DNA from: Hygrophila difformis
Lineage: Eukaryota > Streptophyta > Magnoliopsida > Lamiales > Acanthaceae
DNA length: 64,000 nucleotides
Direction of reading: 5' to 3'
Assembly: GCA_030278955.1 (NCBI GenBank)
Contig: JAOANR010000004.1
Location: 52,579,459 to 52,643,458 of the forward strand
Part shown: positions 28,059-52,028 of the stretch, in pieces
Numbering within the stretch: position 1 is the stretch's first letter
How the letters are laid out: every line of letters begins with the position of its first letter
The notes under the pieces: model-generated
What the model saw: the letters and a program-made list of their open reading frames with translations, nothing else
The model's database searches: none
What the model was told of the DNA's origin: nothing
Position numbers and translations under genes: made by a program

Positions 28059-28061
28059 GAG

Positions 28062-31340: not shown

Positions 31341-31354
31341 TAAAGGGGAGAGAT
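31341..31354 (+). other. Polypurine tract of gypsy element 2
   Basis: TAAAGGGGAGAGAT immediately before the 3' LTR start, similar in position and sequence to the tract of element 1. Confidence 0.75.
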
Positions 31355-33990: not shown

Positions 33991-33992
33991 TA

Positions 33993-35781
33993 TTTCCTTA
34001 ATTCATAGAAAAATCCCATTATTCATTTTCACAGCTTTCATATGTATAATAATTATACTCCCTCCGTCCCACAATAATGTTTCCATTTGACTTTTTGACA
34101 CTGTTCAATGTTCATTATTCAACTTTGACTCGATATTATTGTAATTATATATTTGAAAAAAATAGTCGAGTTCGGTCTTGTTAGATTCGTCAAATCGTAT
34201 AGTTTTAGAATATATATTTTACATAATTTCTACTTGTATATATTTTGAGATATTAACAATTTAAAAAGTGCATTGGATTGTGTGTAGAAATGAAATGGGA
34301 ACATTATTGTGGGACGGAGGGAGTATTAATTATTACGTATACATATAGATATATTTTATTTTTTATTTCATAAGGAATATGCGGTTATACTTTATTTTGT
34401 TGAGAGTCCTATAGCCCTGGGCCATTTGTTAGTTCTTTTTTTCTTTTTCTTTTTAAATTTCTTTGTACTTTTATTTTACTTCTATTTTGTAGCCCATAAC
34501 CCAATAATTTTCATCGACTTGTTCTCTTTTTGTAACTGTATTTTTTGACGTATATCGATTATTTTCAGACCACTCTTTTTCTTGGTCGGATTTTGTATAT
34601 ACATTGTTGTCTTTTTTTTTTAAAAAAAAATAATAATAAAAAATAAAAATAAAATCTACAATACAAATTTACTAATTAACCATCAAATGTATTCTAACGT
34701 GATTAACTACTTAGAGTACATGCAAGAGGGGTGCCATTGAATTTAATTTATAAAATAAAGGAGCACAAGCCCATCTCGTGCCTCGTGGATTCAAATGGGT
34801 AAGATATTTAAAATGAAAACAAGAAAAGAAAAAGAATGCAGGTGAGGTGAAATTAGATGGATATAAAGAAGAAAATGCATGAGAGTTTTGATGTAGAGTT
34901 GTTACACCAAAGTCAAGGCTCCCGAGTCAATAATGTCAATAATTAAACTAAACTCTCCAAAGGGAAAACGTCTGTTCACATCAACACCATTTGCATTTTC
35001 TCTATCCGATGGGCGATAGAAGCCTTATGGACCGACCACTAAGGTTGAAAAACCACCTCAACTGTCCCATGGTCTCCACTTCAATTCAAACCATTCATGT
35101 TTCAAAGCTAAGGGTCAGAATCAGATTTCACAATAATAAGTTCAGTACATGTTATAACACATATGTGTGTTGAGTAATACTTACTTGCCTTTGATGCCCT
35201 TTCTGAGGAAGATATTCCATCATCTCCCAAAACATTTGGCAGATCCAAGAATTTTGAACCAGAGTATATTATTCGGTTACAGCCATAAGGCGAGCTAAGA
35301 AAAAAAAAACAAATATCAAGATAAAAAACTTAACCACGGCCCCAACCGGCTCACAGGCTGGGTTCATTAAAGAATATTAAAATCAATTTAGAGCATCGAG
35401 TTCATACCGGCTGTACTTTTCTGTAATTTTAAAACATGAATTGAACTTGCACTGAAAGCAAATCTAAAGTTGGCATTGAACTTTTGTGCACCCTAATAAC
35501 TCAAATTAAGAATATACTAGCTAACTTCCAACCCAAAATCGAATACATTTAAATACCATTCTGAATATGCATCTTATTGAATAATGAATAATACAATCTA
35601 CACAGAATCGATATTGCCACAAAATGCTTATAAATAAAAATTTAAAATTAAGATGAATATTATACAGTACGGATCTAGAACTTATGCATAGAAACACACA
35701 AATACTTTTAATCTCTCAACCCATTCATAATCTCACATACATTTTCCTTTTTCACATACTGAACATTTCAGCTTGTAACCC
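33993..35781. other. Duplicated RBR upstream spacer, no gene
   Basis: From 33995 to about 35400 this is colinear with 14870-16850, i.e. the spacer next to RBR paralogue 1. It is therefore the far part of the original RBR 2 upstream spacer, pushed away by TE insertions. A MITE is at 34058-34323. The 60-codon frame at 34991-35173 has no support. 35401-35781 holds nothing recognisable and probably includes the receptor kinase 3' UTR. Confidence 0.65.
34058..34323. mobile_element. Stowaway-like MITE (266 bp), long inverted ends
   Basis: CTCCCTCCGTCCCACAATAA at the left pairs with the right end TTATTGTGGGACGGAGGGAG, a perfect 20-base inverted repeat; TA on both sides (34056-34057, 34324-34325). 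The homologous spacer at about 15110 lacks it. Confidence 0.95.
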
Positions 35782-38720
35782 TCATCGACCATTTAGAGCA
35801 TTAAACTGTGAAAACATAGCCGTTCCCGAGTGATCGATGTCCCCCGGCATCTCCGCCGGCACCCTGGGCGACCCACTTTCCGACGACGACGAGCTACCCG
35901 CTGGCTGCGGCGGCTTAATGGTAGAAGTAGGGCTGGGAAGCGGCTTGTGCTCCTCCTCCGACTTGCCTTGCTCCGAATTCTCCTGAAGCTGCAGAGCATA
36001 CTCCAAATTCCACAGCACATCGCCCATGGTCGGCCTATCGACGCCGTACTCAGCCAAACACTTCTCGGCAGCCTCCGCGAACTTCTTCAACGACTCGGTG
36101 TTGATGTGGCCGACAAGTAACGGATCCATTATTTTCTCGAGCATCCCTTTACGTTTCCACTGCATTGCCCATTCGGCCAGGTTCACTTGCTCCCTCGGCA
36201 GGGCGGGGTTGATCGCCGGACGGGCGCAGATCGCCTCTAATAAGACCACACCGAACGAGTACACGTCGGATTTCTCCGTGAGCTGTTGTTTCCAGAAGTA
36301 TTCAGGATCGAGGTACCCGAAGCTCCCCTTAACCGCCGTGCTCACGTGCGTTTGATCGGTTGTGGGAGCGTCTTTGGATAACCCGAAATCGGCCATTTTC
36401 GCCACGAAGTTCTCGTCGAGAAGGATGTTTGTGGTCTTCACATCACGGTGTATGATTCCCTGCGCCGATCCCGTGTGTAAGTAATGCAGACCTCGGGCGG
36501 CGCCGATGCAGATTTCCAGCCGCTGTTTCCACGTCAGGGTAGGTAAGTCTTTGCCGTAGAGGTGGTCGCGGAAAGGTCCGTTCGCCATGTACTCGTAGAC
36601 TAAGATCATCTCCGAATTCTCGTTGCAGTAGCCGATCAACGACACCAGATGGCGGTGCCTGAGCTTGGACAGGATTTGGATCTCTGTTTGGAATTCGTTG
36701 ATCCCCTGTTCCGATTGCGGGTTGCCGCGTTTTATCCCGACTTTCTGGCCGTCGGTTAGGACACCATAGTACACATTGCCGAATCCGCCGACACCGACGA
36801 TGTTGTCCGTGCTCCAATTGTTTGTGGCTTCTTGCATTTCGGCAAACGTGAAGCACCTTCCGAGGCCCACCATGGACGAGTTGAATTGGCTCTTACGCGA
36901 CCCATGGTTCGACGACATGAAAGCTGTGTCGCCAGCGTGGATTGGCAGTAGCCATGAGGAAAAGCTATTCGCTTTCTGCCAGTTTTGCGGCCGTTTTTTC
37001 CACTTGACTGCCATTGCGCCCAACCCGATGAAGGCTCCAACCATCATTGTGAAACCAACTGCTGCCACCGCCCCGCGGTGGCTGAGGCCGCCCGATTCGT
37101 CCGGACCAAATGTTCCATCAAGGCTGCCGATGGAGTTGTTCATTTTGAATACTTCTAGGCCATTTAATAAGGCGTTTTTAGTGCCCGTGTTGTCCAATGT
37201 CGGACCTACTTGAACTGTTATTGGATCCAAGGAGGTAACCATGGTGGAATTCACCACAAAATCGGCGAAGTAGGCGGCGGTTAGGCCCCCGGCAACTGTG
37301 GTTAAATCCAAGCCGGAAATGACTATCTGCCCGTTGATGTAGACGTTGAAGTAGAGTTCATTTGGAGCTCTGCTCACAATATCGGCAAAGTGAAGACGGA
37401 TGAGGTATTGGAATGACGGATCGATCTTTAATTTCCATGTGATGTTGAAATTGGGAACCTAAATTTTCAAATACAATTTGGAAATGTAAATGGTTTAATT
37501 ATTCATGCATGAGCTTCAAACCCTAGATTTATTTTTATTTGGAAATATAAATGGTTTAATTATTCATGCATGAGCTTCAAACCCTAGATTTATTTTTATT
37601 TGGAAATATAAATGGTTTAATTATTCATGCAAGAGCTTCAAACCCTAAATTTATTTTTATCTCAAAACGTCTTTAACCTTTTGATATTTATTGCATAGCT
37701 CTTAAATTGATTTTATCTGAAATTAATCATCAAAATGAAGTGATTCAAATCTTCAATTTGTGTTATTGTTATACTACTGACCTGAACATTGGCGTTCGCC
37801 ATCTGCGTGGCGCTGGCGTAGACCACCGGTGGCGCAATTAGTGGCGACTCGCCCTCCGGGTAGGTGATCACCTTTGGCTCGACGGTGACAGCTGTTCCGG
37901 CAATTTTCGGGTCAAGGTACGGCTCATCCGGCTCCCAAGACCTTCCGATGGTATCATTTAGGGGTGTGATCGTCGGACCACCGGAGTTCAACCGGTAAAC
38001 CGTCTGATACGCGACGGATGACGGGCCAGAGTAATCTCCCCTGGGGAAAACCGCCTTGGCGACGTTGCTGAGCCCTATATCCGGTGCCGACACGAACTCT
38101 ATGCCGTTGATAAACGCCGCGCTGCCCTCGTCCGGCTGGAACGCGATTGAAAATTGTTCCGTCACAACATTGACCAGATATTCCTTCATCGACCACCGCT
38201 TCTTGGGATCCAATTCGGATTTGAAACCATAGGTGAGCATTACTCCATTGCCTGTTTGCACCTTGAATTTCGCCTCGTTCAAATCGATCACGCTCGGCGT
38301 CGGCGCAAAGTGGAGCCTGACCCAATGCCATCCGGGTCGGGTCACGCGGAAGATATAAATTGCCTCGGCGTCGAACACCCTGCACGAACGGTAAATCGGC
38401 GACGGAACGCTCTGGTCATCCGGCGGAAGCAGGCCCCGAATGTCCTGGCCTTTGTAATTTAAAAACTTCTGGCCTTCCTGATCGCCGATGAAGACGCGGT
38501 TGCCGGGTAGCGTCGTGGTGGCGGGGTTGCCACAGTCGAGGAGGAAATTGTCCGGAGGGGTAAAGGCGAAGGATTTCGCCGGAGCGTCGATTAGCGCGGC
38601 CTGGGTTAGCATTGCCCCAAATGATAGGAAGAAGAACAGAACCATGAGAACCGCCGCCGCGGCAGAGGCGGCGGAGGAGGAGCACCGAAGGGGGAGCCGC
38701 CATGGAGGTGTTTTCTCCAT
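35782..38720 (-). CDS. CrRLK1L receptor-like kinase (malectin-like domains, BUPS-like)
   Basis: Two exons, 38720-37782 and 37458-35782, joined by a 323-base GT-AG intron, give 871 residues. A signal peptide (about 1-41) precedes two malectin-like extracellular domains (about 50-430), then a transmembrane segment (about 442-465) and a Ser/Thr kinase. Kinase features are the glycine loop GVGGFGNV (about 534-542), lysine 556 (VGIK, where VAIK is usual), HRD 650-652 and DFG 670-672, all intact. The tail is Ser/Pro-rich and ends AMFSQFNALNGR. CrRLK1L proteins sense RALF peptides and cell-wall state at the plasma membrane. The ANGPFRDHLYG and CARPAINPALPREQVNLAEWAMQWKRKG motifs remind me of the Arabidopsis BUPS1/2 subgroup (pollen-tube integrity); this is from memory. 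Most CrRLK1L genes lack introns, so the intron is of interest. Confidence 0.92.
37478..37660. repeat. 61-bp triplication inside the receptor-kinase intron
   Basis: Three head-to-tail copies of a 61-base unit (37478-37538, 37539-37599, 37600-37660), each containing AAATGGTTTAATTATTCATG and GAGCTTCAAACCCTA. Copies 1 and 2 are almost identical; copy 3 has a few changes. They make up more than half of the intron. Confidence 0.92.
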
Positions 38721-40084
38721 ATCGACTCTCCTGCTGAGGAGGAGGAGGAGGAGGAAAACAGGAACAATTCAGGAATTAATTGTGGGGGGAAGAATTAAAA
38801 GGGGGGGAATTTTTTAAGGGATGCTGAAGAAAAGCATCGTTTGTGATTTGCGTTTTTTTGGTGTTTCGCCCGAGATTGGTATTAGCGGCGATTGAACTCT
38901 TATTTTGGCACTCCCATGCTGTCGGGAGATTGTGCGGTTGACTCTAATTTCTATTTTTAGTAACTGTGAGTTCTTCTTTTCTATTTTTGGTAACTACGAC
39001 TTTTTCGGTTTCTTTGTCAAGTACTCGAATTTTAGAAAGGAACAGAATTTTCATCATTCCACATTTTCATATTAATTTTAAACATTGCTATATATTCACC
39101 CAGCACACAGTCCAATGCATTTTTAAATAATTAATAATTTAAATTCAATATATATAAAAATTCTAAAAATTAGATATTTCAAAAATTACAAGACGATACG
39201 AATCTAACAAGATCTCACTTGGCTATATTTTAACTTATATAACCATGATAAAAGTTTAAATTAAAATATATAAATAAACAGTAGGCATTTATCAAACTTA
39301 ACTAACACAAAAAAATGAAGTATATAACAAACAAAGCATCTAACCCATCCGTTCTCTACTAGTAAATTTTATTTACGACTTAAATACAGGCTAAAATATA
39401 TATACATATAGTATTATATATTTGAGAAATATTTAGATGACCATTGACCAAACAGGTCAACAAAAGTTTGTGTTAAAGAGAGCACACTACGTCACTACCT
39501 ATTTGCCACCACTCCCAAGGACGAATAATCTTATAGGGAACAAATTCAAAAGCCACTAGGCACTAGGACGAAAAGTTCTCGTTGGACTCGTAGTCCAATA
39601 TATTTATTTAATAATTAATATATTAATATGTGAAAATAAATATTTTATAAGATACCATTCGACTAAATTTTTTTATATAATTGCAACAAAATTCATTGCA
39701 ATCTTATACTAAAGCCCCATAATTTATTGCAACCTTATACTTCTCCTACCAGAACAAAATTTAGACGATTGCCGTCTTTCCTACACATCATGGATTGTGA
39801 ACCATCGGGTAGTTATCTAATGAAAATGGAACCCAAGAATATAAGGTACAACTATTTTCCGGATGCTATTAATAGCAGAAAATTTTACTTGTATTCAATG
39901 GGCAATTTAGATAAAAGCAGGGGTGAGTAAACTACTCCATAGAGTCTCGTTTTATATTGGGGCAAATTATAGTAAAGGACCCATTAGATTTAGTTTGTAT
40001 TTTAAAAAGACCCATTGTAAAAAACTTACAAAAAAGGACCCATTTAAGTTTTGACTTTAAAATAGTACCCACCTAACTTCCCAA
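38721..40084. other. Receptor-kinase promoter side and spacer, no gene
   Basis: The 5' UTR and promoter of the minus-strand kinase lie at the left, including a CTCCTC run (about 38730-38760). A decayed MITE is at about 39079-39320 (CAGTCCAATGCA, ACGAATCTAACAAGATCTC). The 67-codon frame at 39727-39930 is unsupported. The left border of the viral insert falls somewhere between about 39950 and 40177. Confidence 0.5.
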
Positions 40085-40176
40085 TAAATTTATCTTTAAG
40101 CATGAGACACACTCTACAATTTGAGCAAAAATTCCATTTACTTTGTAAACCCACTAAAATAATTAACTTATAAAAA

Positions 40177-40443
40177 ATGAATCAAGAAGAAATAAATTCA
40201 TTAATATATGAATATGGAATATATTTACAAACTATGGAAGAAAGAATTGAAAATTGGAATGACATTGTTTACACTATACTCATATTTTTAACTGAATATA
40301 ATCAAAAGGTATATCCCTATTCGGAAGAAAAAAGTTTTTGGGACAAAATAATTTTACTCAGAATAGGATCAGATAGTGAAAATTATGATGAAGAACAACC
40401 AGACAATTTAAGTAATTATGGTGAATATTATTTTTCTGATTAA
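40177..40443 (+). CDS. Small viral ORF A upstream of the primer site (88 aa)
   Basis: ATG at 40177, 88 residues, acidic with a DSENYDEEQPDN stretch near the C-terminus. It lies before the primer-binding site, so on the pregenomic RNA it would be the last open frame of the leader region. Base composition matches the other viral frames. I do not recognise a domain; by position it could be compared with the small leader-proximal ORFs of other caulimovirids, but no function is claimed. Confidence 0.6.
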   Translation: MNQEEINSLIYEYGIYLQTMEERIENWNDIVYTILIFLTEYNQKVYPYSEEKSFWDKIILLRIGSDSENYDEEQPDNLSNYGEYYFSD

Positions 40444-40500
40444 AACCAGTAACACAACAAAATTAATTAAAATATTTTTATTCCACCCCTTTTTACAATT

Positions 40501-40512
40501 TGGTATCAGAGC
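40501..40512 (+). other. tRNA-Met primer-binding site of the pararetrovirus
   Basis: TGGTATCAGAGC is complementary to the 3' end of plant initiator tRNA-Met, the standard minus-strand DNA primer in Caulimoviridae. By convention it marks nucleotide 1 of the circular genome. Confidence 0.95.
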
Positions 40513-40532
40513 CCAGAACGATTAATCTGGAC

Positions 40533-41267
40533 ATGAGTAATCATAATCATAATGATCATATATTAAACTATCATATGTCAAGATTAAGATTAAATACTTC
40601 AGAACAACTATACCCAGAATATATTCCAACAGCAAGATATCCTTTAGATGAAAATCAAGAAATAGATTATCCACTAAGTACGATTAATCCACTCGATACT
40701 GAAAACTATATAATAAATAGAAATAATGAATATACACAAAATAACACCGAAAGCTTGATGATACAAGCAAGAATTGAAAGAGCCTTTCTAAACAGAATAA
40801 GAGGATTGGAACCACAAATAAGACCAATTACAGACATAAGAACCAACAATAATCGTAGATTTTTAACACCCACATTTAATCCTGATCATGAAATAAGTCA
40901 AGGAGAAATAGAAAATATGGATCAACAAATAGAAGAAAGAAAAACATACATAGACAGAAGAAGAAGAAGATTAAATAGATTGCAAAACGATGAAGAATTT
41001 GGAATAAGACTAGGAAATAGAGGAAAAAGATTACTTTGGATAGGAAACTATATAATTGAAACGGAAGAATATAATGGTAATTTAATACAAATTATATCAA
41101 AAAGAGATGAAGAACAAGAGTTAGTATCACAAGTCAAATTATCTATAATCAACAATGAAATTACAACTTACAGAATGTTTCCAGGATATATAACACACAA
41201 CACCATGTTTACTAGAGCACCTTCACCCGAATTTTCAGATCAAGAATCAAATTATAGTGAAGACTAA
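40533..41267 (+). CDS. Viral ORF B, unknown function (244 aa)
   Basis: The first ATG in frame is at 40533; the frame is open further upstream to 40500 but only with a TTG across the primer site, so 40533 is preferred. 244 residues, rich in Asn, Arg and Glu, with an arginine cluster DRRRRRLNRLQ at about 143-153 and an acidic end (SDQESNYSED). No domain recognised. It holds the position of the movement protein in caulimo- and soymoviruses but shows none of the 30K signature, and the movement protein is found further downstream. ORF C begins four bases after its stop. Confidence 0.7.
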   Translation: MSNHNHNDHILNYHMSRLRLNTSEQLYPEYIPTARYPLDENQEIDYPLSTINPLDTENYIINRNNEYTQNNTESLMIQARIERAFLNRIRGLEPQIRPITDIRTNNNRRFLTPTFNPDHEISQGEIENMDQQIEERKTYIDRRRRRLNRLQNDEEFGIRLGNRGKRLLWIGNYIIETEEYNGNLIQIISKRDEEQELVSQVKLSIINNEITTYRMFPGYITHNTMFTRAPSPEFSDQESNYSED

Positions 41268-41271
41268 TAAG

Positions 41272-41598
41272 ATGCCAGGAATAAAGTTAGAAAATGAAAC
41301 AATAGAAAGACTGACTAATAAAATTCATGAAATAGAAAGTCAACCACAAGATATAAGTACCATAATAATGAAACAAAAACTATTAAGAATAAAATTCAAG
41401 ATTTCTAAAATGATAGATGAAAGAGAAGCATATGTAATTATACAAAAACACATAGATCCAGAAAAAGAAGAATCGGAGTTAATAAAAGAATGGTATTTAA
41501 ATGAATTAGAAACAATAGAAATAGAAGAATTAGAAAGGGAAACTGAAATAGATGAAGTAAACGACTTCATTAGAAACATAAGAAATATTAGAAGATGA
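41272..41598 (+). CDS. Viral ORF C, small charged protein (108 aa)
   Basis: ATG at 41272, 108 residues, rich in Glu, Lys and Ile with heptad-like spacing suggesting helical coiled coil, ending in IEELERETEIDEVND and a basic tail. Its stop overlaps the start of ORF D (ATGA at 41595). By position it might correspond to the aphid-transmission or virion-associated small proteins of caulimoviruses; the sequence alone does not show this. Confidence 0.65.
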   Translation: MPGIKLENETIERLTNKIHEIESQPQDISTIIMKQKLLRIKFKISKMIDEREAYVIIQKHIDPEKEESELIKEWYLNELETIEIEELERETEIDEVNDFIRNIRNIRR

Positions 41599-41948
41599 GT
41601 TATCTAGAAGATTTAGAAACAATAAAAGATGGAATTGAACTAATAAAAGAACTAATGATAAGTCTAGATACAAGACTCTACAATATCGAAAGATACATAG
41701 ACAAAACAATAATTAAAACTCCACAAAAGCAAGTAGAATTAGAAAAGTCACTCCCTCTACCAAAATGGGAGAAGACACCAGAACCAGGAAGTCTCGATCA
41801 TAGAGTAATGATGAAAGAAATAGAAAAACTAAACAAACAAAATAAAATTAGAATTCTTATAGACAAAGTAGAAAAATTAAAAAAGATAAATGAAGAACTA
41901 AAGGAAGAAAAATTAGAAAGTAGAGAAGATAAAGAAGAAACAGAATGA
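41595..41948 (+). CDS. Viral ORF D, coiled-coil protein, VAP-like by position (117 aa)
   Basis: ATG at 41595 within ATGA shared with the ORF C stop. The first 40 residues have regular hydrophobic spacing (LETIKDGIELIKELMISL), then a Pro/Lys segment, then a highly charged helix. A small coiled-coil protein immediately before the coat protein is reminiscent of the caulimovirus virion-associated protein, but no sequence proof is available. Its stop overlaps the coat protein start (ATGA at 41945). Confidence 0.65.
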   Translation: MSYLEDLETIKDGIELIKELMISLDTRLYNIERYIDKTIIKTPQKQVELEKSLPLPKWEKTPEPGSLDHRVMMKEIEKLNKQNKIRILIDKVEKLKKINEELKEEKLESREDKEETE

Positions 41949-43414
41949 ATACAAGTATAGAAGACTTAATAAATGAATTAAGTAGTGATTTAGAACGACT
42001 AAATTTAGAACCAATATATACAGGAACATTTTCAGAAACAGAATTAGAAACTAATGAAAGTGATTTGGAAGAACAACATAAAGTCTTTATGAATAATCAT
42101 AGATTATATTTACCATCATCAGAAGTAGTTGAAGAAACTAGCACTACCTTGCCAAGAGAAGGTGTAACAGGAACTATACCAATGGAAGTAGATCAAACTA
42201 CAAATAGACAAAATGTAGACAATTATCAAAGTAGATTACAAAATTTACCTTCAAGAAATTTTCCAATAAGAAAAACAACCTCTAAAAAAGAAATTTGGAA
42301 ATACAATGAAGATTTTGAGTTAAAAGAAACAAGAATAGGAAATGTGAGACCAGGAGATGCAATATTCCTAAACCTGGATTGTCTTAAACAGCCAAGTCTA
42401 GAACTAGAAAAATGGAAACAGATAATAAGAATACATTTAATGTCAGAAGAAAGTACGTCAAGAGCAAAAACATTAAAAATATGGAATTTAGTCCAAGGAA
42501 ATGTGGCACAATTCCTTGCAGGAATTTCATCAAATACAAAACAAACTTATATGAATACAATTACTCAAGGATTTGGACAAGATGTAAACACAGGAATAGA
42601 GGAATTTATCAATATCATACAAGAAGAATTCCTAGGAGTACAAAGCTTAGATAATAATGCTATAATAGAAGAACGAGATCAAGCGTTACTAAGATTAAAT
42701 AAAATAAGACTAAGAGATTTATGCTTTTTTGATCAATTCTCTGAACAATTTAAAAGTTACTATTATACAGCTTATACAAGCTCACAAAATAATGAACACA
42801 CCATGAACTCTATATTTTCAAAACTACCATCACCATGGGATGAATATATGTGGAAAACATGGATTCAAAATAAAAATGACTATCCGAATAATTTAGGAAG
42901 CCGAATAAGATTAATAAGACAGGTAATAACTGAGTTATGTTACCAAAGAAAAATATTAGATCACACTAAAATATATAATAAAGCTGCTGATTTATGCTGT
43001 CAAGAAAATGCAGAAAATTTTGAATGGGGAAAAAATAAAACATATAGAAAAAATAAGAGATTTAAAAAATTTAAACCAATAAAAAGAAAATTTAAGAAAG
43101 GAAAAAGATTTAAAATCTTTAATAAGAAAAAATTCTTTAAGCCAAAATTTGGAAGAAAATATTATAAAAGAAGAAATGACAAAAGACAAAATAAAAAGAA
43201 TCCAACCACATGTAAATGTTATAACTGTGGAGAAATAGGACACTTTGCAAGTGATTGTACAAAACCAAAGAAAAAACAAGTAAGATTTATGGAATATGAT
43301 ATTATAGATGAACAAATATTCAAAGAAATAGAATCAGATCTAGAAAGTATAAGTGAACCAGAATCAGGAGATGAGATATATGAAGTAAAATTCTCTGAAA
43401 TAGAAAATGAATAA
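41945..43414 (+). CDS. Pararetrovirus coat protein with CCHC zinc knuckle (489 aa)
   Basis: 489 residues. The N-terminus is acidic and the middle (about 110-340) is the capsid-like helical region. A strongly basic stretch (about 365-420, Lys/Arg/Phe-rich) follows, then a CCHC knuckle at residues 425, 428, 433 and 438 (CYNCGEIGHFASDC) and an acidic end. This order, basic region plus one zinc knuckle plus acidic tail, is characteristic of caulimovirid coat proteins, which package the DNA genome and bind its RNA. The frame is intact. It overlaps ORF D by 4 bases and the movement-protein frame by 8 bases. Confidence 0.9.
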   Translation: MNTSIEDLINELSSDLERLNLEPIYTGTFSETELETNESDLEEQHKVFMNNHRLYLPSSEVVEETSTTLPREGVTGTIPMEVDQTTNRQNVDNYQSRLQNLPSRNFPIRKTTSKKEIWKYNEDFELKETRIGNVRPGDAIFLNLDCLKQPSLELEKWKQIIRIHLMSEESTSRAKTLKIWNLVQGNVAQFLAGISSNTKQTYMNTITQGFGQDVNTGIEEFINIIQEEFLGVQSLDNNAIIEERDQALLRLNKIRLRDLCFFDQFSEQFKSYYYTAYTSSQNNEHTMNSIFSKLPSPWDEYMWKTWIQNKNDYPNNLGSRIRLIRQVITELCYQRKILDHTKIYNKAADLCCQENAENFEWGKNKTYRKNKRFKKFKPIKRKFKKGKRFKIFNKKKFFKPKFGRKYYKRRNDKRQNKKNPTTCKCYNCGEIGHFASDCTKPKKKQVRFMEYDIIDEQIFKEIESDLESISEPESGDEIYEVKFSEIENE

Positions 43415-44783
43415 AGATAAAGAAATAATCACAGAAGAACAAGAAGAAACAAAAGAAATAGAATATGTAGAACAATATGAAGGACAAAGAGGATATGCAA
43501 TAAAAGCTATCCTAAGTCCAGAACAAATTAATAAAATACAAGGATTAGATCTAAAACATGGATTCAAGCATACAAATTTTAATATACTATCAAGAACATT
43601 CTCAAGAAATAATATAGTAATTCATGAATATCATGAACTAGAAAAAACAGTGGATGTATGTAACACTAATACTACTCTAAAACTGCACCTTTTAACAAAA
43701 GATATAATAAATAAAGGGCTAGAAAAATTAAGTAGAAAGAAAACAGAGAAAATACAATACGTACATTTAGCAGGAGTAAAGATTCTAATAAAATCTTTAT
43801 TTAGAAGTGGAATAGACTTACCAGTAACAATAAGCCTACATGATTCAAGATTATTAAATCCACAAGACTCACACTTAGGAACTATTAATGGAAACCTGAT
43901 TTACCAAAAACTACTATTTACATGTTACCCAAACTATTGTGTATCTTTACAAGATCAAAATATAGACGAAACATTAACCCTATACATAAAAGTACATAGG
44001 AATGATGTAATGAAAAATGAAAGTAAAATATTTACAGTACATTATAGTGCTTTTTATAGCTACCTAAATAGCAATAGACTAAAACCTTATGATGATAAAA
44101 AGACAATAGAAATACACGAAGCATGTAGAGACACAATAGCAGATCTAATATTACCAGAATTGAATAATCCAACGTTACAAGATGATTGGATAATTGATCT
44201 TGCAGACAAGAAAAATACAATAGAAATTGGAAAACCATTAGAAAATAGGAGACCACAATTATCCTATGTAGGAAGAACAATGAGTAGTAGAAAAAGTATA
44301 GATTATAGCCCAAGAACAAATCTAATACTTGATCAACCAAGACATAGTATTGATATCCCATACGAAAAGAGTAAACAAAAAGCCCAAACATGGAGGATTA
44401 ATATAGAATATTATAATGGCACAAACTGGATAAAAGGACCAAACATATTAGTAGACACTGGAGCTGGTAAGAATCATATAGGAAAAACTTGTATAAATGG
44501 ATTAACAAAGCATATAGGAACAGAATATAGATATACTACTTTTGAAGGAGAAGTAAAAAGAGTAAATGAAATAGTAATAGTACCAATAAAACTAGGTACA
44601 GACTTAATAGAAGAAGTAAAATGTTATGTAGCAGAAGAAGAAGGAACATCTAGTAGCACCTATCATGTCTTGTTAGGCAATGAGTTTTTAGACTCATTAA
44701 ACAAATATACGATAACAGGAGAAATTTTTAGTGGAAAAACAAAAAATGGAAAAGCTTTCGTAATAGGAAAAGCATATATATGA
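43407..44783 (+). CDS. 30K movement protein fused to a retropepsin-like domain (458 aa)
   Basis: ATG at 43407 inside ATGAATAA, sharing 8 bases with the coat-protein stop. Residues about 55-225 match the 30K movement-protein pattern: a VHLAGVKILIKSLFR strand, the conserved aspartate in LHDSRLL, then GNLIYQKLLFTCYPN. Such proteins form tubules through plasmodesmata. After a Ser/Arg-rich linker, residues about 325-450 look like an aspartic protease of the retropepsin fold: VDTGAG at 349-354 (Asp350) and a late LLGNEFL. This is separate from the protease in the next frame. Whether it cleaves anything is unknown; it may be structural or may process the movement/coat proteins. Frame intact. Confidence 0.85.
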   Translation: MNKDKEIITEEQEETKEIEYVEQYEGQRGYAIKAILSPEQINKIQGLDLKHGFKHTNFNILSRTFSRNNIVIHEYHELEKTVDVCNTNTTLKLHLLTKDIINKGLEKLSRKKTEKIQYVHLAGVKILIKSLFRSGIDLPVTISLHDSRLLNPQDSHLGTINGNLIYQKLLFTCYPNYCVSLQDQNIDETLTLYIKVHRNDVMKNESKIFTVHYSAFYSYLNSNRLKPYDDKKTIEIHEACRDTIADLILPELNNPTLQDDWIIDLADKKNTIEIGKPLENRRPQLSYVGRTMSSRKSIDYSPRTNLILDQPRHSIDIPYEKSKQKAQTWRINIEYYNGTNWIKGPNILVDTGAGKNHIGKTCINGLTKHIGTEYRYTTFEGEVKRVNEIVIVPIKLGTDLIEEVKCYVAEEEGTSSSTYHVLLGNEFLDSLNKYTITGEIFSGKTKNGKAFVIGKAYI

Positions 44784-46702
44784 AAGAAATTAGATTTCCA
44801 ACAACAGTATACCTAGAGTTAACTATACTACAAACAAATATAACAACATGTGCTATACTAGATACAGGAGCAGAAATCACATTAATACAAGAACATTTAA
44901 TAAAAGAATTGGAAGAAAATAAAAGACCAATAGAAGTACATGGAGCTACTGGACATAGTCTAATTATTAATAAAATAGCTAAAGATGTTCAAATGATTTT
45001 AGGTAATAAAATATTTACAATACAAGAAGTATATTTTAGCCCAGTAAAAACAATTGATGTATTATTAGGGACAAATTTTACAAGTTTATTTCAAAGCTTT
45101 AGAGTAGATAGATATAATATTCAACTTAGATCAGCATGTAACCACTATATTACTATTCCGAGGATAAGGAAACCATACAGAGTGCTTCAGAAACGTGGTG
45201 AAAAAGGAGAAATTATAAAACAACCAATTACTTATTACATAAAATTTAAAATTCACAAAATTAAAAAACAAGTGCTAATTCAAAAGCCGGAAGATTTTGA
45301 TAAATATGAACTTCATGAGACAATAAAATACATCTCTGAAAACTATGGAGAAAATCCAATTGAAAAATGGAATCTTAATAAAATATATGCAGAATTAAAA
45401 ATGAAAAACGACGATATAATAATAAGAACTCAACCTATGATGCATAATCAAGAAGATATTGAAGAACTTCGAAAACAAATAAATGAATTGTTAGAATTAG
45501 ATCTTATTCAAGAATCTATAGCAGAACATAATAGTCAGGCTTTCTTGGTTAGAAATCGTAATGAACAAATAAGAAAGAAACCAAGGTTAGTAATAAACTA
45601 TAAGGAACTAAACAAAAACATGATATTTGATGGATACTTTCTACCTAACAAAGAAAATCTAATAGGATTAGCTAGAGGTAGAACTATCTATTCAAAATTT
45701 GACTGTAAAAATGGATTTTGGCAAATTAAAATGCATCCAGATAGTATAAAATATACAGCCTTTAGTACACCACAAGGACACTATGAATGGAAAGTTATGC
45801 CGTTTGGAATAAAAAATGGACCACAAATATTTCAAAGAAAAATGGATAAAACATTTAAAAAATTTAGTAACTTTATATTTGTATACGTAGATGATATACT
45901 AATAGCCTCAAACACTATAGAAGAACATAAAAAACATTTAGATATATTTGCAAAACTTTGTAAAGATCATGGATTAATCTTATCAGAAAAGAAAGCAGAA
46001 ATATTCAAAAATGAAATAGAATTTTTGGGTCTAATATTAAACAAACTTGGAATTAAAATGCAACCACACATAAGTACAAAACTTGTTAAAATGCCTGATG
46101 AACTTAGGAATAAATTAAACATACAAAGATTTCTTGGAATTCTAAATTATGCAGAAGGATTTATATCAAATTTAGCAAAAAAGACAAATGATTTAAGAAA
46201 GTTGATCAGAAAAAATAATAAAATAGGATGGAATGATCAACATACTGAAATTGTTAAACAATTAAAAGAAGAATGCTCCAAATTACCACCGTTAAGATTA
46301 CCTGATGAAAAAGATAATTTAATAGTACAAACCGATAGCTCAGACTACCATTGGGCAGGATTATTAAAAACCGATACTGGTGAAATTTGTAGATATGCAT
46401 CAGGAACATTACAAGGAGCAGCCATAAACTATAGTACAAATGAAAAAGAATTACTTGCAGTAATTAAATCAATAGATAAATTTTCATTTTGGTTATTAAG
46501 TAGAAGGTTTAAAGTATTAACTGACAATACACAAGTAAAACCTTTAATTTATAATAAAGTTCCAAATAAACCCCAATATAGAAGAATAATAAGATATCAG
46601 ACTTTTTTGTCAATGTATGACTTTACTGTTGAATATATTAAAGGGACTGAAAATTATCTAGCTGATTTTTTGAGCAGGAACCCTGAATATGGAGAACAAT
46701 GA
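44780..46702 (+). CDS. Pararetrovirus protease - reverse transcriptase - RNase H (640 aa)
   Basis: ATG at 44780 in ATGA with the previous stop. Domains: retropepsin (about 15-115) with DTGAE (Asp28) and LLGTNF; reverse transcriptase (about 215-440) with SKFDCKNGFWQIK, MPFGIKNGP and YVDD at 369-372; RNase H (about 510-635) with aspartate 519 in QTDSSD, the glutamate of STNEKELLA and aspartate 582 in TDNTQ. There is no integrase, as expected for Caulimoviridae. The protein copies the pregenomic RNA into DNA. All active-site residues are present and there are no internal stops. It overlaps the next frame by 14 bases. Confidence 0.96.
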   Translation: MKEIRFPTTVYLELTILQTNITTCAILDTGAEITLIQEHLIKELEENKRPIEVHGATGHSLIINKIAKDVQMILGNKIFTIQEVYFSPVKTIDVLLGTNFTSLFQSFRVDRYNIQLRSACNHYITIPRIRKPYRVLQKRGEKGEIIKQPITYYIKFKIHKIKKQVLIQKPEDFDKYELHETIKYISENYGENPIEKWNLNKIYAELKMKNDDIIIRTQPMMHNQEDIEELRKQINELLELDLIQESIAEHNSQAFLVRNRNEQIRKKPRLVINYKELNKNMIFDGYFLPNKENLIGLARGRTIYSKFDCKNGFWQIKMHPDSIKYTAFSTPQGHYEWKVMPFGIKNGPQIFQRKMDKTFKKFSNFIFVYVDDILIASNTIEEHKKHLDIFAKLCKDHGLILSEKKAEIFKNEIEFLGLILNKLGIKMQPHISTKLVKMPDELRNKLNIQRFLGILNYAEGFISNLAKKTNDLRKLIRKNNKIGWNDQHTEIVKQLKEECSKLPPLRLPDEKDNLIVQTDSSDYHWAGLLKTDTGEICRYASGTLQGAAINYSTNEKELLAVIKSIDKFSFWLLSRRFKVLTDNTQVKPLIYNKVPNKPQYRRIIRYQTFLSMYDFTVEYIKGTENYLADFLSRNPEYGEQ

Positions 46703-47777
46703 ACAATTGGATGATGCTGGTCTGACTGACCACATTTACAATGAAATAGATCGACTACAAAAACTACTCCAGTCGACTATGGACAGACAACTAAAACTGC
46801 AACAATTGATTGTTGGGAGTTTTATGGACGAACATAAGACTATCAATGACGATATATATGAATGTAACAAATGTTTGCAGGGATTACTAACTACTATGGA
46901 AGAATACTTTTACACCCCTGAAGAACTAAATACTGGTGTTTCAAACCAGGAAGGGAAAGCTAATCCTGTTCCACAAGAGGACAAACAAGCAAAACAATCT
47001 GGGGATGCAAGACCTTCGACCTCGTCGAAAAACATTGCAGAAACTAAGAAGTATTTTTGCGACAATATTCCTCAACCAACACCCATTAGCCCTGAAACAA
47101 GAAACTTTTTAGCAGAATACCATACCTTAAGCAGCTACATATACTCTTTACCCAGACAAGAAACATCATTCTACACAGAATTCACCAAATCCCTACATCC
47201 ACAAGTAACTATTTTACCAGGCTGCGACCCAAACTTTGTTTCGAACTGTTTCAAATTCGGCTTTATCAGAACTATTTTCCTGTCCCCTTTACGAACCGAA
47301 ATATCCAAATTACCTGTATTAATTGAAGCCCTAAACATAAGACCAAAAACCCAGAAACTGAAAATATTTTCTATCAGTCCAGAAGTCAAACACCCTTCCT
47401 ACCATCTTGCTATTGCAGAAGAAATCACTAAACCAGAAAGTTATCCTCAAGACTATGGAACCCCCAAAACAGAAATCTTCAATGACAAATACATCCACTT
47501 CAAAAGAGCAATGGGGATACGTGCTGTCCATGAACAGATGAAAAGACTATACAACCAAGGAGCAGGAATCTTTTTTGGAAATGAAGAAATTGTAGTGATT
47601 GAACAATTGAACACTCCAGGATTCAGATCAGGAAACTTAGCAGGACTAATTCAGAAATTTGACACATACAATTTTGAATGCTCAGAAGAAGTCAAGAGTA
47701 TCTGGAAGAAAGCTGTAGAAAAATCCACCACAAGTCTAAAGACAAGAACATTTCTTCGGAAAGAGACAACGAAGTGA
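46689..47777 (+). CDS. Transactivator / inclusion-body protein-like (362 aa)
   Basis: ATG at 46689, 362 residues. Last frame before the pregenomic promoter, the place of the translational transactivator (TAV) in caulimo-, soymo-, cavemo- and solendoviruses. The N-terminal third is coiled-coil-like and polar with a Ser/Pro/Lys linker (about 75-120); the rest (about 125-330) is a compact domain with GCDPNFVSNCFKFGF and MGIRAVHEQMKRLY. TAVs let ribosomes reinitiate on polycistronic RNA and build virus factories. Assignment rests mainly on position and general shape. The tight start/stop overlaps of the upstream frames fit such a mechanism. Confidence 0.7.
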   Translation: MENNEQLDDAGLTDHIYNEIDRLQKLLQSTMDRQLKLQQLIVGSFMDEHKTINDDIYECNKCLQGLLTTMEEYFYTPEELNTGVSNQEGKANPVPQEDKQAKQSGDARPSTSSKNIAETKKYFCDNIPQPTPISPETRNFLAEYHTLSSYIYSLPRQETSFYTEFTKSLHPQVTILPGCDPNFVSNCFKFGFIRTIFLSPLRTEISKLPVLIEALNIRPKTQKLKIFSISPEVKHPSYHLAIAEEITKPESYPQDYGTPKTEIFNDKYIHFKRAMGIRAVHEQMKRLYNQGAGIFFGNEEIVVIEQLNTPGFRSGNLAGLIQKFDTYNFECSEEVKSIWKKAVEKSTTSLKTRTFLRKETTK

Positions 47778-48070
47778 GGTAAGCAGTGACGACAAAGAGG
47801 AACAATGTAGCACTAAGAAGAGAATAATGCAGCAAGACGTATGCCATGACGAATGCACACAAACAAACAAAGAAGAAAGATAATAAACAAGTGAATTATT
47901 GAAGACAATAATGTATAGCCACCGGATGAATTATTACAAGAAGACAGCTCAAAGTGCATGATTAAAGAAGAAAGTGACAGCCACCAAACATCAATAATGG
48001 AGAAGAAAAGAAGGGAGAAGATGATGCCACGTACCTCAATTCAGGACCATTAGATCTTCAGAACTCCATC

Positions 48071-48077
48071 TATAAAA
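48071..48077 (+). promoter_or_regulatory. TATA box of the pregenomic RNA promoter
   Basis: TCTATAAAAGGAGGC, the typical 35S-type TATA context of caulimovirids, about 290 bases after the last viral frame. Transcription would start about 30 bases downstream, near 48100. Confidence 0.8.
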
Positions 48078-48203
48078 GGAGGCAATGCTTATGAAGAAGG
48101 CAGAAGTGAAGATACCTATCATAGTATTCTTTCTCTTGCATTTCTTTGTAATCTTTAGTTCTCTCTGTGTGATGTAAAACTATGAGTGATTTTAAAAGCT
48201 TTC

Positions 48204-48209
48204 AATAAA
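48204..48209 (+). terminator. Viral poly(A) signal
   Basis: AATAAA about 100 bases downstream of the expected start site. In caulimovirids the signal sits just past the cap site so that the RNA is terminally redundant; it is bypassed on first passage and used on the second. Confidence 0.75.
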
Positions 48210-48713
48210 AGATGATCGGCTAAGTACAATAGCCTGATCATTCCAGTAAATATCTTCGAGTATATTTTTCTAAAAGTCTACCAAAATTCTGAATATATGT
48301 GAGTGAGTGAAACATATGTTGAGAGTCATGTCATCGATACAGTGATTTCCGAGAGGTCATGCATACCGGAGTAAGGCAGGAGGCCTGAAAGAAGGATAGC
48401 AGACGAGGAAAGAAGGTTACTCGTTGAAGGACTTGATCAGAAGTTTCAACCACAAAGCTTATACTACGGAAGCGAGGTAGACCCTGAAATTTTACTTTGA
48501 ATGATAAATACTGTGAATGATCATGGCATATATTTCAATTATTTACGTTCTCTGCAAAAGATCATTAAATAGAATCTATAACATAATATTTGATATTGTA
48601 AGAACAAATACAACAGAAAATTTACTACAATACAAGTCTTTCACTTTTCATATATTAGATTGTTCGATAAAAATACACAATACACAGAACCACTAGATAA
48701 GAAGGATAAAAAT

Positions 48714-48832
48714 ATTTAATAATAATAATAATAAATAATTAATTAAATAATAAATAATAATAATAAATTAATTAATAATAATCAGTAAATTAAATATAAA
48801 TAAATAAATAAATAATAAAATTAAGGATATTT
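48714..48832. repeat. AT-only simple repeat at the viral right border
   Basis: Almost pure A/T (AATAATAAT, TTAATTAAATAAT and AAATAAATAAAT runs). It separates the viral leader from the RPT4 upstream region and is a likely integration point or filler. Confidence 0.8.
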
Positions 48833-49204
48833 TAATATTTCCTATCAATCATTTTAGAACAGGTTAATCTTTAAATGTTAAATAAGTTTCAAAGTTTTGG
48901 GGTCCCTATCTCTAAACTTATGAAAAGGGGGTCTTTGACCCTAATATTATGTTTCAAGAGGTCCCTCTCCCAAACTACCCCTTTATATTGATTGAGCTGG
49001 GCCTTGAATTTTAATTAAATATTATGCTATCGGGCTTTTACTGACGGCCCATTTCAAGGGGTAGAGAGTGATGGTTCCTTTCTTGGCCAACAAGTTCAAA
49101 TACTGAATCGAGGTTATGGTGTTCAGAAATTGAATTTATTGGGAATTTCTGGAGGAGAGGGCAGACCGGCTCAGGAAATTACATAGAAAAGGAAGAGAAC
49201 GGAA
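48833..49204. promoter_or_regulatory. RPT4 upstream region and 5' UTR
   Basis: Contains GGTCC-rich stretches at 48898-48970 of a kind often seen at plant repeat edges. The 5' UTR must be in the right part. No clear core promoter motif was identified. Confidence 0.45.
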
Positions 49205-52028
49205 ATGGCTACCGAAGGTGGTGAAGATGCCGGCCGCCGCAAGGCGATTCAGGATTACAGGCGAAAGCTGCTAAACCACAAGGAACTCGAAGGGCGCGTT
49301 CGATCTGGTTTCTATTTATTAAACCCTAGTTTTCTACATTTGGTTTCTTGATAAAAAAATGTATATTTATTTATTTTATACAAGAGCTTGATTTTGATGA
49401 CTTATACTTGCTTAGTGAAGGATTTGATCTGTTTTGTGTGAAATTTTCTTGGGTTCTAGTCATTTTGGGATTCAGCGCCGGGTTGTTGTGGTTTATTTTG
49501 GGCAAACGAACGATGTGGTGGGAAGTGGAGGAGGAGCGGATTGGGATTTGGGATCCTAGTGTTTTTAATTTGAAATTGGATATATGTATGGTTGAGATTT
49601 GTGCTTCATCTTGATAATTTGATGTTGGATTGGATCTTTCTTAAGACGAACAGTCGAATTGAGTGAGCTCATTTTTGAAGCTTTAATTGGAAATATTGAA
49701 CTGTTTTATTATGGTTGTATTGTTGTAGAGTTCTGTCTGAATCTTAATAGTAACTACTGAGTGGCCTTGGTTTTTGAATGGAAGTGCCATTTTCGAAGGG
49801 TAAACTGTGCTAGTGCTCACAATATTCTTCAATTGTACTAGTATTCTTCTTGGAGCATTTTCGGGGTAAACTCGCAGAGAAGTGTTTGTGCAATAGGGTT
49901 GAGTCAGAATTTATTGACATGAGTTGTTTTGTGTGTGCTGCATTTTGATTATTTCTCTGAATTTTTTTGACAAATATTGCTTATATTTTTGGCTTCTTGA
50001 CGATCAATGTTGAACTAGTTCAGTACTGATGGTGAATTTTTACCTATGAAGTACTTTATCTTCAAGTTGACACTATTGTCCTTACTAATTAAATATTGTA
50101 TGATTTGAACAGCGAGGGAGAATTTAAGAACTGAAAAGAAGGAGTATGCCAAGACAGAAGATGATTTGAAGTCTCTTCAGAGCGTTGGACAGATTATAGG
50201 CGAAGTTCTCAGGCCATTGGACAATGAACGTTGTAAGATTTTTACTTGCTTTCTTTTTAAGCTCAATATCTCCAATCCCGATTCTTACTTGCTTTCTTTT
50301 TTAAGTTTATTGCTTCCAATCCTCCATGTTCGCCTCTTCTGTTCAAACTTAACTCTTTTTCTTAATTCAGTTGATAGAAACTTTTATTCCATAGTTCTTT
50401 CTATATGGAAGGTCGCTAGTATATTAGGATTTTCAGGCATTGTGGTTTTTCTGGTTTTAATGGATTGCTTTTCAAACACAAATTGAGGATGTTATTACCA
50501 TTTTTAGTGATAGTCAAAGCAAGCAGCGGCCCAAGATATGTGGTTGGGTGTCGTAATAAAGTGGACAAAGATAAACTTACCGCAGGCACCAGGGTGGTTC
50601 TTGATATGACAACCCTTACAATTATGCGAGCTCTTCCACGTGAGGTATAGAAATGTCTGCAATACTGCTAAGCTTGCCTGGTTAAAGCTCCTTTTGATAA
50701 TTTGATTCAATCCCCATCTTTTTATTAACTGTTTTTTGTCTTGTTGAATGGTGTAGGTAGATCCAGTTGTTTACAACATGCTTCATGAGGACCCTGGAAA
50801 TGTTAGTTATTCTGCTGTCGGTGGACTAGGTGATCAAATTCGAGAATTGAGAGAATCAATAGAATTGCCTCTAATGAATCCTGAGCTGTTTCTTAGAGTT
50901 GGAATAAAACCTCCCAAAGGTGTACTTCTTTATGGACCTCCTGGAACCGGCAAGACGCTGCTGGCCAGAGCTATTGCCAGTAACATAGATGCCAATTTCT
51001 TGAAGGTTGATAAAAATGCAAAACAATGTTTATTACAGTGATCTTATCATTTGATTCCTACTTATAAGATGCCATTAAATAGGTTGTATCAAGTGCTATT
51101 ATTGACAAGTACATAGGTGAGAGTGCAAGATTGATCAGGGAAATGTTTGGCTATGCACGTGACCACCAGGTATGCATTAGATGCAATGTCTGTTTGTCTA
51201 TAAAAGTGCTTTATTATCTAATTTATTTTCTACCTTTCTTTTGTCTGAAGCCGTGCATCATATTTATGGATGAGATTGATGCCATTGGTGGGCGTCGATT
51301 TAGTGAGGGAACAAGTGCAGATCGGGAAATTCAGAGGACCCTGATGGAGCTATTAAACCAACTTGATGGTTTTGATCAGCTTGGAAAGGTGTTGTTTTGC
51401 TATCAATTGTTGAATTTGAATTCTTGCATGAAACTGCCTGGGCCTGAATAGGGTTGGGTTGAGTTATCTTCAGGTTAAAATGATAATGGCAACGAACAGA
51501 CCTGATGTTCTGGATCCTGCCCTTCTCCGCCCCGGCCGTTTGGACAGGAAAATCGAGATACCATTGCCTAATGAACAATCGAGGATGGAAATTCTCAAGA
51601 TTCATGCTGCTGGAATAGCCAAACATGGGGAAATTGATTATGAAGCTGTTGTAAAGCTTGCTGAGGTAAAAATTTAGGAAAAACAAATCAAAACAAAAGT
51701 TGAAGTGCTTGATTAACCTTTTATCCAATATCATGCATGTCTGATGGCTGATGGCTGATGTGTTCCATTGTCTAGGGATTTAACGGGGCTGATCTTCGCA
51801 ACATATGTACAGAGGCTGGCATGTCAGCAATTCGTGCAGAGCGTGACTATGTTATCCATGAAGATTTCATGAAGGTAAAATTTCCTAACTTGAGATGTTG
51901 AATTTGGCAGTATGAAGAAAATCAGTGGTATTTATGATTGAAAAATATGACAGGCTGTACGGAAACTGAATGAGGCTAAGAAACTTGAATCAAGTGCCCA
52001 TTATAGTGCTGACTTAGGGAAAGATTAG
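49205..52028 (+). CDS. RPT4: 26S proteasome regulatory ATPase subunit RPT4
   Basis: Nine exons: 49205-49307, 50113-50232, 50508-50644, 50757-51005, 51083-51169, 51251-51388, 51474-51665, 51776-51874, 51954-52028; all introns GT-AG. They join without frame change into 399 residues, the length I know for plant RPT4. N-terminal coiled coil and OB domain (about 20-120) precede the AAA ATPase: Walker A GPPGTGKT at 180-187, Walker B FMDEID near 238-242, and the second-region-of-homology block [18 protein letters not shown] near 285-302. RPT4 is one of six ATPases of the 19S base that unfold ubiquitinated proteins and feed them to the 20S core, in cytosol and nucleus. The C-terminus (LGKD) lacks the HbYX motif, as expected for RPT4. 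Confidence 0.96.

What the first reader, a model, noticed from the sequence alone, without database searches (positions are those of the whole stretch)
40177..47777. Endogenous pararetrovirus with all eight frames open
Seen: eight plus-strand frames without stops or frameshifts over 7.6 kb, with intact YVDD, two DTGA, CCHC and RNase H residues. Known: most endogenous caulimovirids in plants are broken and rearranged. Inferred: this copy is young, under constraint, or a close copy of a virus that still circulates.
Basis: partly seen in the sequence, partly recalled or inferred. Interest (0 to 1): 0.92.

Follow-up and report, generated by a model that had tools for sequence, protein, structure and literature searches.

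The report
Plant virus with jumping-gene ends
A complete reverse-transcribing plant virus lies in many near-identical copies across this plant genome, and most of the copies examined have fixed ends and a 9-letter target duplication like those of a jumping gene, which suggests how a virus without its own integration enzyme might enter chromosomes.

Summary
The eight open frames (40177-47777) are real, and the gene order (capsid; movement protein + protease; second protease + RT + RNase H; conserved last ORF) is that of 'Wendovirus', a caulimovirid genus proposed in 2022 from endogenous copies. New here: the copy is a 9,022-bp unit (39960-48981) with short imperfect inverted ends and a perfect 9-bp target-site duplication (TTTATATTG), as in Mutator-like DNA transposons. 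At least 92 copies, 98-100% identical in the movement protein/protease, lie on contigs C1-C15 and a few small ones. Of 40 copies whose ends were read, 32 have an exact 9-bp duplication, against 1 of 1560 mispaired controls. Five types of ends exist; 5' and 3' types match in all 36 copies where both were found. Between lineages pN/pS is below 1 in all eight genes (RT 0.04-0.09), so they multiplied as functional viruses rather than as dead cargo. Best reading: a pararetrovirus whose genome carries transposon ends and is inserted by a host Mutator-like transposase. Neither the transposase (its search did not complete) nor a joined-ends form was found.

The parts
39951..39959 (.). 5' copy of the 9-bp target-site duplication TTTATATTG
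   Evidence: identical to 48982-48990; read
39960..40169 (+). 5' terminal region (type A); outermost 22 bp form a short imperfect inverted repeat with the 3' end
   Evidence: seven other type A copies start at the same place; 40 full-length places of 97-100%, the window's own included; inverted-repeat test
40177..40443 (+). ORF1, 88 aa, unknown
   Evidence: open in the B, B', C and D copies compared; pN/pS 0.13-0.30
40501..40512 (+). primer-binding site for initiator tRNA-Met (TGGTATCAGAGC)
   Evidence: exact match; 0.16 expected by chance in the window at up to 1 mismatch; the motif is also given for a caulimovirid in PMC13308828
40533..41267 (+). ORF2, 244 aa, unknown
   Evidence: pN/pS 0.30-0.53, one copy per type; no Pfam or NCBIfam match
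41272..41598 (+). ORF3, 108 aa, unknown
   Evidence: pN/pS 0.11-0.50 on few changes; only a sub-threshold DUF match
41595..41948 (+). ORF4, 117 aa; by position and heptad-like sequence a possible virion-associated protein (inference)
   Evidence: pN/pS 0.05-0.38; broken in the type B copy examined
41945..43414 (+). capsid protein, 489 aa, with CCHC zinc knuckle
   Evidence: PF22909 8.9e-11, PF00098 9.7e-8; pN/pS 0.16 between copy clusters
43407..44783 (+). movement protein (30K) with a C-terminal aspartic protease, 458 aa
   Evidence: PF01107 6.9e-39, PF13975 1.7e-7; DTG and LGN kept in four relatives of 37-39% identity, although Pfam scores the protease there only weakly in one of them
44780..46702 (+). 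Pol: second aspartic protease, reverse transcriptase, RNase H, 640 aa
   Evidence: PF02160, PF00078, PF17917/PF17919; RT pN/pS 0.037-0.087 between end types; protease part 0.38 between clusters
46689..47777 (+). ORF8, 362 aa, in the place of the transactivator (recalled); conserved, unknown
   Evidence: pN/pS 0.07-0.13; no homolog at E <= 0.001 among 1680 candidates of a 5.8-billion-protein search
48070..48076 (+). TATA box (CTATAAA) of the likely pregenomic promoter; TGACG boxes at 47787 and 47847
   Evidence: pattern scan; function inferred
48204..48209 (+). AATAAA, likely polyadenylation signal
   Evidence: function inferred
48231..48535 (+). long leader hairpin (approximate limits)
   Evidence: fold z = -2.0, 4 of 100 shuffles as good, weak on its own; 48100-48499 is 95-98% identical between types A and B while 47800-48099 is 62-72%
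48731..48981 (+). 3' terminal region (type A), ending ...CAAACTACCCC
   Evidence: shared end in the seven type A copies
48982..48990 (.). 3' copy of the 9-bp target-site duplication TTTATATTG
49205..49309 (+). host gene beside the insertion: first codons of the 26S proteasome ATPase RPT4 (subunit 10B), about 215 bp downstream of the element
   Evidence: phmmer to PDB chains named RPT4/10B, 5.6e-5 over 23 residues

Best explanation
This is one of many copies of a wendovirus-type caulimovirid whose genome carries DNA-transposon ends. Shown: copies of one type end at the same points, with short imperfect inverted termini and, in 34 of 36 copies with both ends found, a 9-bp target duplication (32 exact); several lineages with different ends exist; pN/pS between lineages is below 1 in all eight viral genes. 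Inferred: the two ends sit side by side in the circular viral genome, between leader and ORF1; a Mutator-like transposase supplied by the host acts at them and inserts the viral DNA; copies later return to a circular form from which the pregenomic RNA is transcribed and reverse transcribed. So the virus alternates between viral replication, which keeps the genes functional, and transposition, which gives the dispersed, exactly bounded copies.
For: Shared ends in copies of one type. Exact 9-bp duplication in 32 of 40 copies; 2 more with one mismatch, 2 with both ends but no duplication, 4 with one end not found. Mispaired ends give 1 of 1560; the 10th base agrees in only 1 of 32. Five end types, 5' and 3' types matching in the 36 copies with both ends found. 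Ends pair in register as inverted repeats, 71 of 110 positions, against 25-44 off register. Between end types pN/pS of RT 0.037-0.087 and, with one or two copies per type, ORF1 0.13-0.30, ORF8 0.07-0.13; capsid 0.16 between copy clusters. Ten further copies found by the type A 5' end alone: 10 of 10 carry viral sequence next to it, 8 of 10 still match the MP-protease. Position: 70% of 86 copies in the outer fifths of their contigs, 40% expected. MULE duplications are 8-11 bp and some MULEs have short or no inverted repeats (PMC6446971, passages).
Against: No recognised transposase is encoded by the element, and the search for MULE transposases in the genome did not complete. No exact joined-ends junction of type A (gap 0-20) exists in the assembly; other types were not searched. 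The inverted repeats are short and poor (13-16 of 22; shuffle p over 50 bp from 0.57 for type A to 0.001 for type C), so the case rests on fixed ends and duplications. Two of 36 copies with both ends lack the duplication; three of the 32 exact ones are near-runs of A, and the two one-mismatch ones lie in simple sequence, where a match says less. ORF2 (0.30-0.53) and the pol protease (0.38) are only weakly constrained. Copies sampled by their end, not by protein, include decayed ones.
Confidence: 0.6

Rival explanations
1. Passive cargo: a whole wendovirus was once caught between the ends of a non-autonomous Mutator-like element (a giant Pack-MULE) and has since spread only by DNA transposition; the viral genes do nothing.
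For: Fixed ends and 9-bp duplications need only a transposase in trans; MULEs tend to acquire host gene fragments (PMC6446971, abstract start in the listing). Within type B pN/pS is 0.44, and some copies are decayed.
Against: Between end types RT has on average 10.8-34.8 synonymous but 1.8-9.8 non-synonymous changes; with 4.5 times more non-synonymous sites, neutral cargo would show the reverse. ORF1, ORF8 and capsid agree. At least five end types carry the same cargo. Selection on the movement protein, needed between cells, is hard to explain for cargo, though that gene was also the search query.
Confidence: 0.17
2. The element makes its own recombinase: one of the unknown proteins (ORF2, ORF3, ORF8) is an unrecognised transposase.
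For: ORF1-4 and ORF8 have no significant Pfam or NCBIfam match, and ORF8 no homolog, so a new enzyme cannot be excluded; viral sequence adjoins the ends in 10 of 10 sampled copies.
Against: ORF8 sits where the caulimovirid transactivator sits (recalled) and wendoviruses have a conserved unknown ORF there (PMC9794742); ORF2-4 are short; a 9-bp duplication is the habit of a known transposase superfamily of plants.
Confidence: 0.13
3. Ordinary endogenous pararetrovirus: repeated infection and illegitimate (end-joining) integration of a circulating virus, as reviewed for endogenous caulimovirids.
For: Low divergence and many copies would fit repeated infection; end joining or filler DNA is the mechanism the review favours (PMC10377300, passages). 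Two copies with both ends lack a duplication.
Against: End joining gives no fixed ends and no duplication of fixed length; here ends are fixed and 32 of 40 copies have exactly 9 bp.
Confidence: 0.04
4. Assembly artefact or contaminating episome joined into the contig.
For: None found; reads were not available.
Against: Copies on contigs C1-C15 with different flanks and different duplications.
Confidence: 0.01

Closest known systems
'Wendovirus' (proposed genus, Caulimoviridae; de Tomas and Vicient 2022, PMC9794742)
   Same: CP with zinc finger, then MP + PF13975 protease, then second protease + RT + RNase H, then a conserved unknown ORF; present only as endogenous copies; about 7.7 kb (passages)
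   Different: Described with four ORFs; here eight. No fixed ends, inverted repeats or target duplications are mentioned in the passages I read. A later tree found the OTU holding it polyphyletic (PMC13308828, passages)
Teratorn (herpesvirus fused with a piggyBac transposon, medaka; PMC10175614)
   Same: A complete virus bounded by DNA-transposon machinery and multiplied in the host genome (passages)
   Different: Herpesvirus of about 180 kb with its own transposase, in fish; here a 9-kb reverse-transcribing plant virus without a recognised transposase
Mutator-like elements, VANDAL-type and Pack-MULEs (PMC6446971)
   Same: 9-bp duplication; short or degenerate inverted repeats are known among them (passages); insertion just upstream of a gene in this one case (MULE preference recalled)
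   Different: Carries a whole pararetrovirus under selection and no recognised transposase
High-copy endogenous caulimovirids (florendo-, petu-, solendoviruses)
   Same: Many near-identical copies; Capsicum annuum has 951 identical solendovirus RT sequences (PMC9794742)
   Different: Integration is put down to end joining or filler DNA at (TA)n repeats, with template switching or a hijacked integrase as suggestions (PMC10377300), not to fixed ends

Membership tests
Caulimoviridae | 30K movement protein, caulimovirid capsid domain, A3-type protease, RT and RNase H, no integrase | tested here: met
   Pfam; no integrase family among the matches
Caulimoviridae | tRNA-Met primer-binding site | tested here: met
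   exact TGGTATCAGAGC at 40501
Caulimoviridae | circular episomal dsDNA in virions | not testable with these tools
   no reads or particles
'Wendovirus' | Two aspartic proteases in two ORFs, PF13975 behind the MP and PF00077 before the RT | tested here: met
   PF13975 above cut-off behind the MP; before the RT PF02160 is best and PF00077 is 20.6 bits against a cut-off of 20.7; DTG in both
'Wendovirus' | ORF order CP / MP-AP / AP-RT-RH / conserved unknown | tested here: met
'Wendovirus' | RT falls in the Wendovirus clade | not tested
   reference RT sequences not held; the clade itself may not be monophyletic (PMC13308828)
'Wendovirus' | four ORFs in all | tested here: not met
   eight ORFs; the published count may have left out short ORFs, so this lowers the exactness of the match, not the gene order. 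I therefore file it as wendovirus-type, not as a certain member
Mutator-like transposon | 8-11 bp target-site duplication at fixed ends | tested here: met
   9 bp exact in 32 of 40
Mutator-like transposon | terminal inverted repeats | tested here: inconclusive
   13-16 of 22 positions; in register 71/110 against 25-44; individually weak
Mutator-like transposon | MULE transposase, own or in trans | tested here: inconclusive
   none recognised in the eight ORFs; the genome search with PF10551 (accession recalled) did not complete
LTR retrotransposon | long terminal repeats and integrase | tested here: not met
   no LTR in 38500-50500; no integrase

The most novel reading that the evidence does not exclude
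A new class of mobile element: a reverse-transcribing plant virus that has taken DNA-transposon ends into its own circular genome and uses a host Mutator-like transposase as its integrase, so that it has a true proviral stage, unlike any caulimovirid described in the papers I saw. Because both ends are one contiguous block in the circle, recombination between virus lineages swaps them as a module, which explains five matched end types on nearly the same genes.
Probability: 0.45. Interest if true: 0.95.

Novelty: new variant of a known kind. Interest (0 to 1): 0.9.

Why it matters
How pararetroviruses without an integrase enter plant chromosomes and multiply there is an open question: a 2023 review says of endogenous pararetroviruses that the mechanism of integration and propagation is unknown (PMC10175614, passage). 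CAULIFINDER's authors mention hybrid mechanisms involving transposable elements as a possibility but found no such chimeras among the consensus sequences of one run (PMC9719215, passages). A family with exact ends and 9-bp duplications makes transposase-driven integration directly testable, would give plants a counterpart to Teratorn, and warns that repeat annotation may file such viruses as transposons or miss their ends.

Tried and rejected
Long terminal repeats: none. Relatives in viral contigs: none by pol or by the MP-protease alignment. Homologs of ORF8: none at E <= 0.001. AlphaFold of MP-protease: useless (mean pLDDT 31.6), so no fold search was made. Rfam: no match at gathering scores in the window. 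Joined-ends junction: 0 exact matches for type A; a looser script scan of 118 held loci gave 4 matches, which I judged to be single element ends or flanks; the type C pattern did not complete. I first took the gene order for a solendovirus or cavemovirus from memory and dropped that when PMC9794742 fitted. A guess at the host from contig number and size (recalled) found no support and is not claimed.

Sampling caution: copies are the best 92 of 1848 candidates ranked by MP-protease similarity, so selection measured on that gene is biased; capsid, RT, ORF1-4 and ORF8 were not the ranking criterion, but they come from the same copies. The first ten copies whose ends were read came from the top 20; the other 30 were drawn at random from the remaining 72. 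Rows dropped: 6 of 20 loci with indels; 10 of 40 RT rows without a certain end type; type D rests on one RT row. Within-type RT pN/pS: A 0.13, B 0.44, B' 0.17, C 0.03. Of the eight end-sampled copies that match MP-protease, five were counted: nonsyn 4-32 against syn 6-13, stops in 2 of 5 (ungapped, so frameshifts inflate it).
Full report
Observation. Eight plus-strand frames are open between 40177 and 47777. In 500 shuffles of the region no open frame exceeded 212 aa, while five real ones exceed 260 codons. An exact initiator-tRNA primer-binding site lies at 40501, a TATA box at 48070 and AATAAA at 48204, followed by a leader that can fold into a long hairpin (z -2.0).

What virus it is. A capsid / movement protein + protease / protease-RT-RNase H / conserved unknown order with two proteases is the description of 'Wendovirus' (PMC9794742; outline and passages), a proposed genus known from endogenous copies; a later tree found its OTU polyphyletic (PMC13308828, passages). 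The protease behind the movement protein looks used: in four metagenomic relatives that reach it (37-39% identical overall) the DTG and LGN motifs are kept, although Pfam scores the domain there only weakly in one, and it shows no amino-acid change between the copy clusters compared here (this gene was also the search query). The four short upstream ORFs and ORF8 have open, constrained counterparts in other lineages of the family, with ORF4 broken in one copy and ORF8 shorter in another, so I count eight genes rather than four.

Copies. A search of the window's own genome (915 Mb, 246 contigs; unnamed) with the MP-protease protein scored 92 of 1848 candidate places; all 92 match over the full length at 98-100% identity, 87 without a stop, 88 of them on contigs C1-C15. 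The type A 5' end alone gives 40 full-length places of 97-100% (40 scored of 230 candidates); by position about 29 of them are not in the first list. The counts are lower bounds.

Ends. Comparing the flanks of ten copies with the window, the seven of the window's type share its ends, 39960 and about 48981. Just outside, the window has TTTATATTG on both sides, and these copies each have their own 9-mer. Three copies of another type (B) have different terminal sequences but again fixed ends and 9-bp duplications. I then drew 30 copies at random from the other 72 and read their ends. In all, 32 of 40 copies have an exact 9-bp duplication; 2 more have one mismatch, 2 have both ends but no duplication, and in 4 one end was not found in the piece. 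Swapping ends between copies gives 1 of 1560, and the 10th base agrees in 1 of 32, so the duplication is 9 bp. The 24 of the first 30 copies that pass the stricter pattern are all distinct and 88% A+T; three of the 32 are near-runs of A. Five end types occur (A, B, B', C, D), and 5' and 3' types match in the 36 copies with both ends found. The outer 22 bases of the two ends pair as inverted repeats in register (71 of 110 against 25-44 off register), though most pairs alone are weak.

Selection. In RT (693 bp; window, 20 random and 19 top copies, 30 of these 40 with a certain end type), pN/pS between end types is 0.037-0.087, with pS up to 0.28 for the single type D row; within types it is 0.13 (A), 0.44 (B), 0.17 (B') and 0.03 (C), the B value at pS 0.005 being what mutations after insertion would give. 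Between copy clusters capsid gives 0.16 and the pol protease 0.38; against one or two copies of each other type, and for ORF2-4 a second type A copy, ORF1 gives 0.13-0.30, ORF2 0.30-0.53, ORF3 0.11-0.50, ORF4 0.05-0.38, ORF8 0.07-0.13. The lineages that differ in their ends therefore diverged while their viral proteins were in use, RT and ORF8 most clearly. Copies sampled by their 5' end, not by protein, include decayed ones: 2 of 10 have lost the MP-protease at the expected place and others have frameshifts or stops. This is a mixture of ages.

Mosaic structure. Types A and B are about 98% identical in the 4.4 kb of capsid-to-RT sequence compared and 95-98% in the leader (48100-48499), but 62-72% around the promoter (47800-48099) and 50-58% in the outermost stretches. 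With synonymous divergence of about 7-10% this is hard to explain by drift alone; it points to exchange of blocks. In a circle the two terminal regions are one neighbouring block, so one exchange would replace both ends together, which is what is seen. The need for matching ends would also keep them paired, so this is an inference.

Surroundings. The window copy lies about 215 bp upstream of the start codon of the proteasome gene RPT4; on its other side are an ORF without Pfam match (37713-38720) and a protein-kinase ORF (35782-37377), both on the minus strand. Of 86 copies on contigs of known length 70% lie in the outer fifths (40% expected), and 5 of 67 within 5 Mb of the Ty3 clusters (11.5 expected, with cluster centres set by hand as a rough stand-in for centromeres). 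A review describes endogenous caulimovirids of beet, petunia and tomato as preferring pericentromeric regions (PMC10377300, passages).

Mechanism. Shown: fixed ends, 9-bp duplications, lineage-specific ends, purifying selection. Inferred: integration by a Mutator-like transposase in trans, and a circular stage with joined ends from which the pregenomic RNA is made. Not found: a transposase (the genome search did not complete), or the junction (type A only). I put 0.6 on the model as a whole, about 0.95 on the ends and duplications being real.

Literature. Held-library searches for pararetrovirus or Caulimoviridae with target-site duplication, inverted repeat, Mutator, Pack-MULE, transposase or Teratorn (listings, the first 20 of 171) showed me no report of a caulimovirid with transposon ends; most subscription papers are not in that library. 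CAULIFINDER reports no transposon chimeras in one run (PMC9719215, passages); the review PMC10377300 (passages) mentions a suggestion that a transposon-derived integrase might be hijacked.

On rereading the calls I softened 'nearly every copy' to 'most', corrected the promoter identity range, added the within-type ratios, the low-complexity duplications and the weak Pfam scores of the relatives, and disclosed a majority-codon step.

Noticed in passing
window 28062-28073 and about 26000-34000: A second exact initiator-tRNA primer-binding site inside a stretch of strong GC skew, probably an LTR retrotransposon.
   Followed up: no
window 13290-13949 and 18564-19352 (-): Two ORFs with IBR domains about 5 kb apart, possibly a tandem pair.
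   Followed up: no
L033 392-1463: The 5' end of one type B copy is present as three tandem units of about 354 bp, the outermost carrying the target duplication.
   Followed up: partly
G000 C6:3536784-3544800: Two MP-protease matches facing each other only 5.3 kb apart, too close for two whole elements: probably an inverted rearrangement.
   Followed up: no
P0003-P0007, P0009-P0014: Metagenomic contigs (ENA) encode MP-protease relatives of 37-45% identity; the four longest reach the protease; whether plant DNA or free virus is unknown.
   Followed up: partly
window 47800-48100: The promoter region differs strongly between types A and B while the leader just after it is 95-98% identical.
   Followed up: partly
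window 39964-40044: Short repeated motif (AAAGGACCCATT) inside the 5' terminal region, possibly a protein-binding array (family D10).
   Followed up: no
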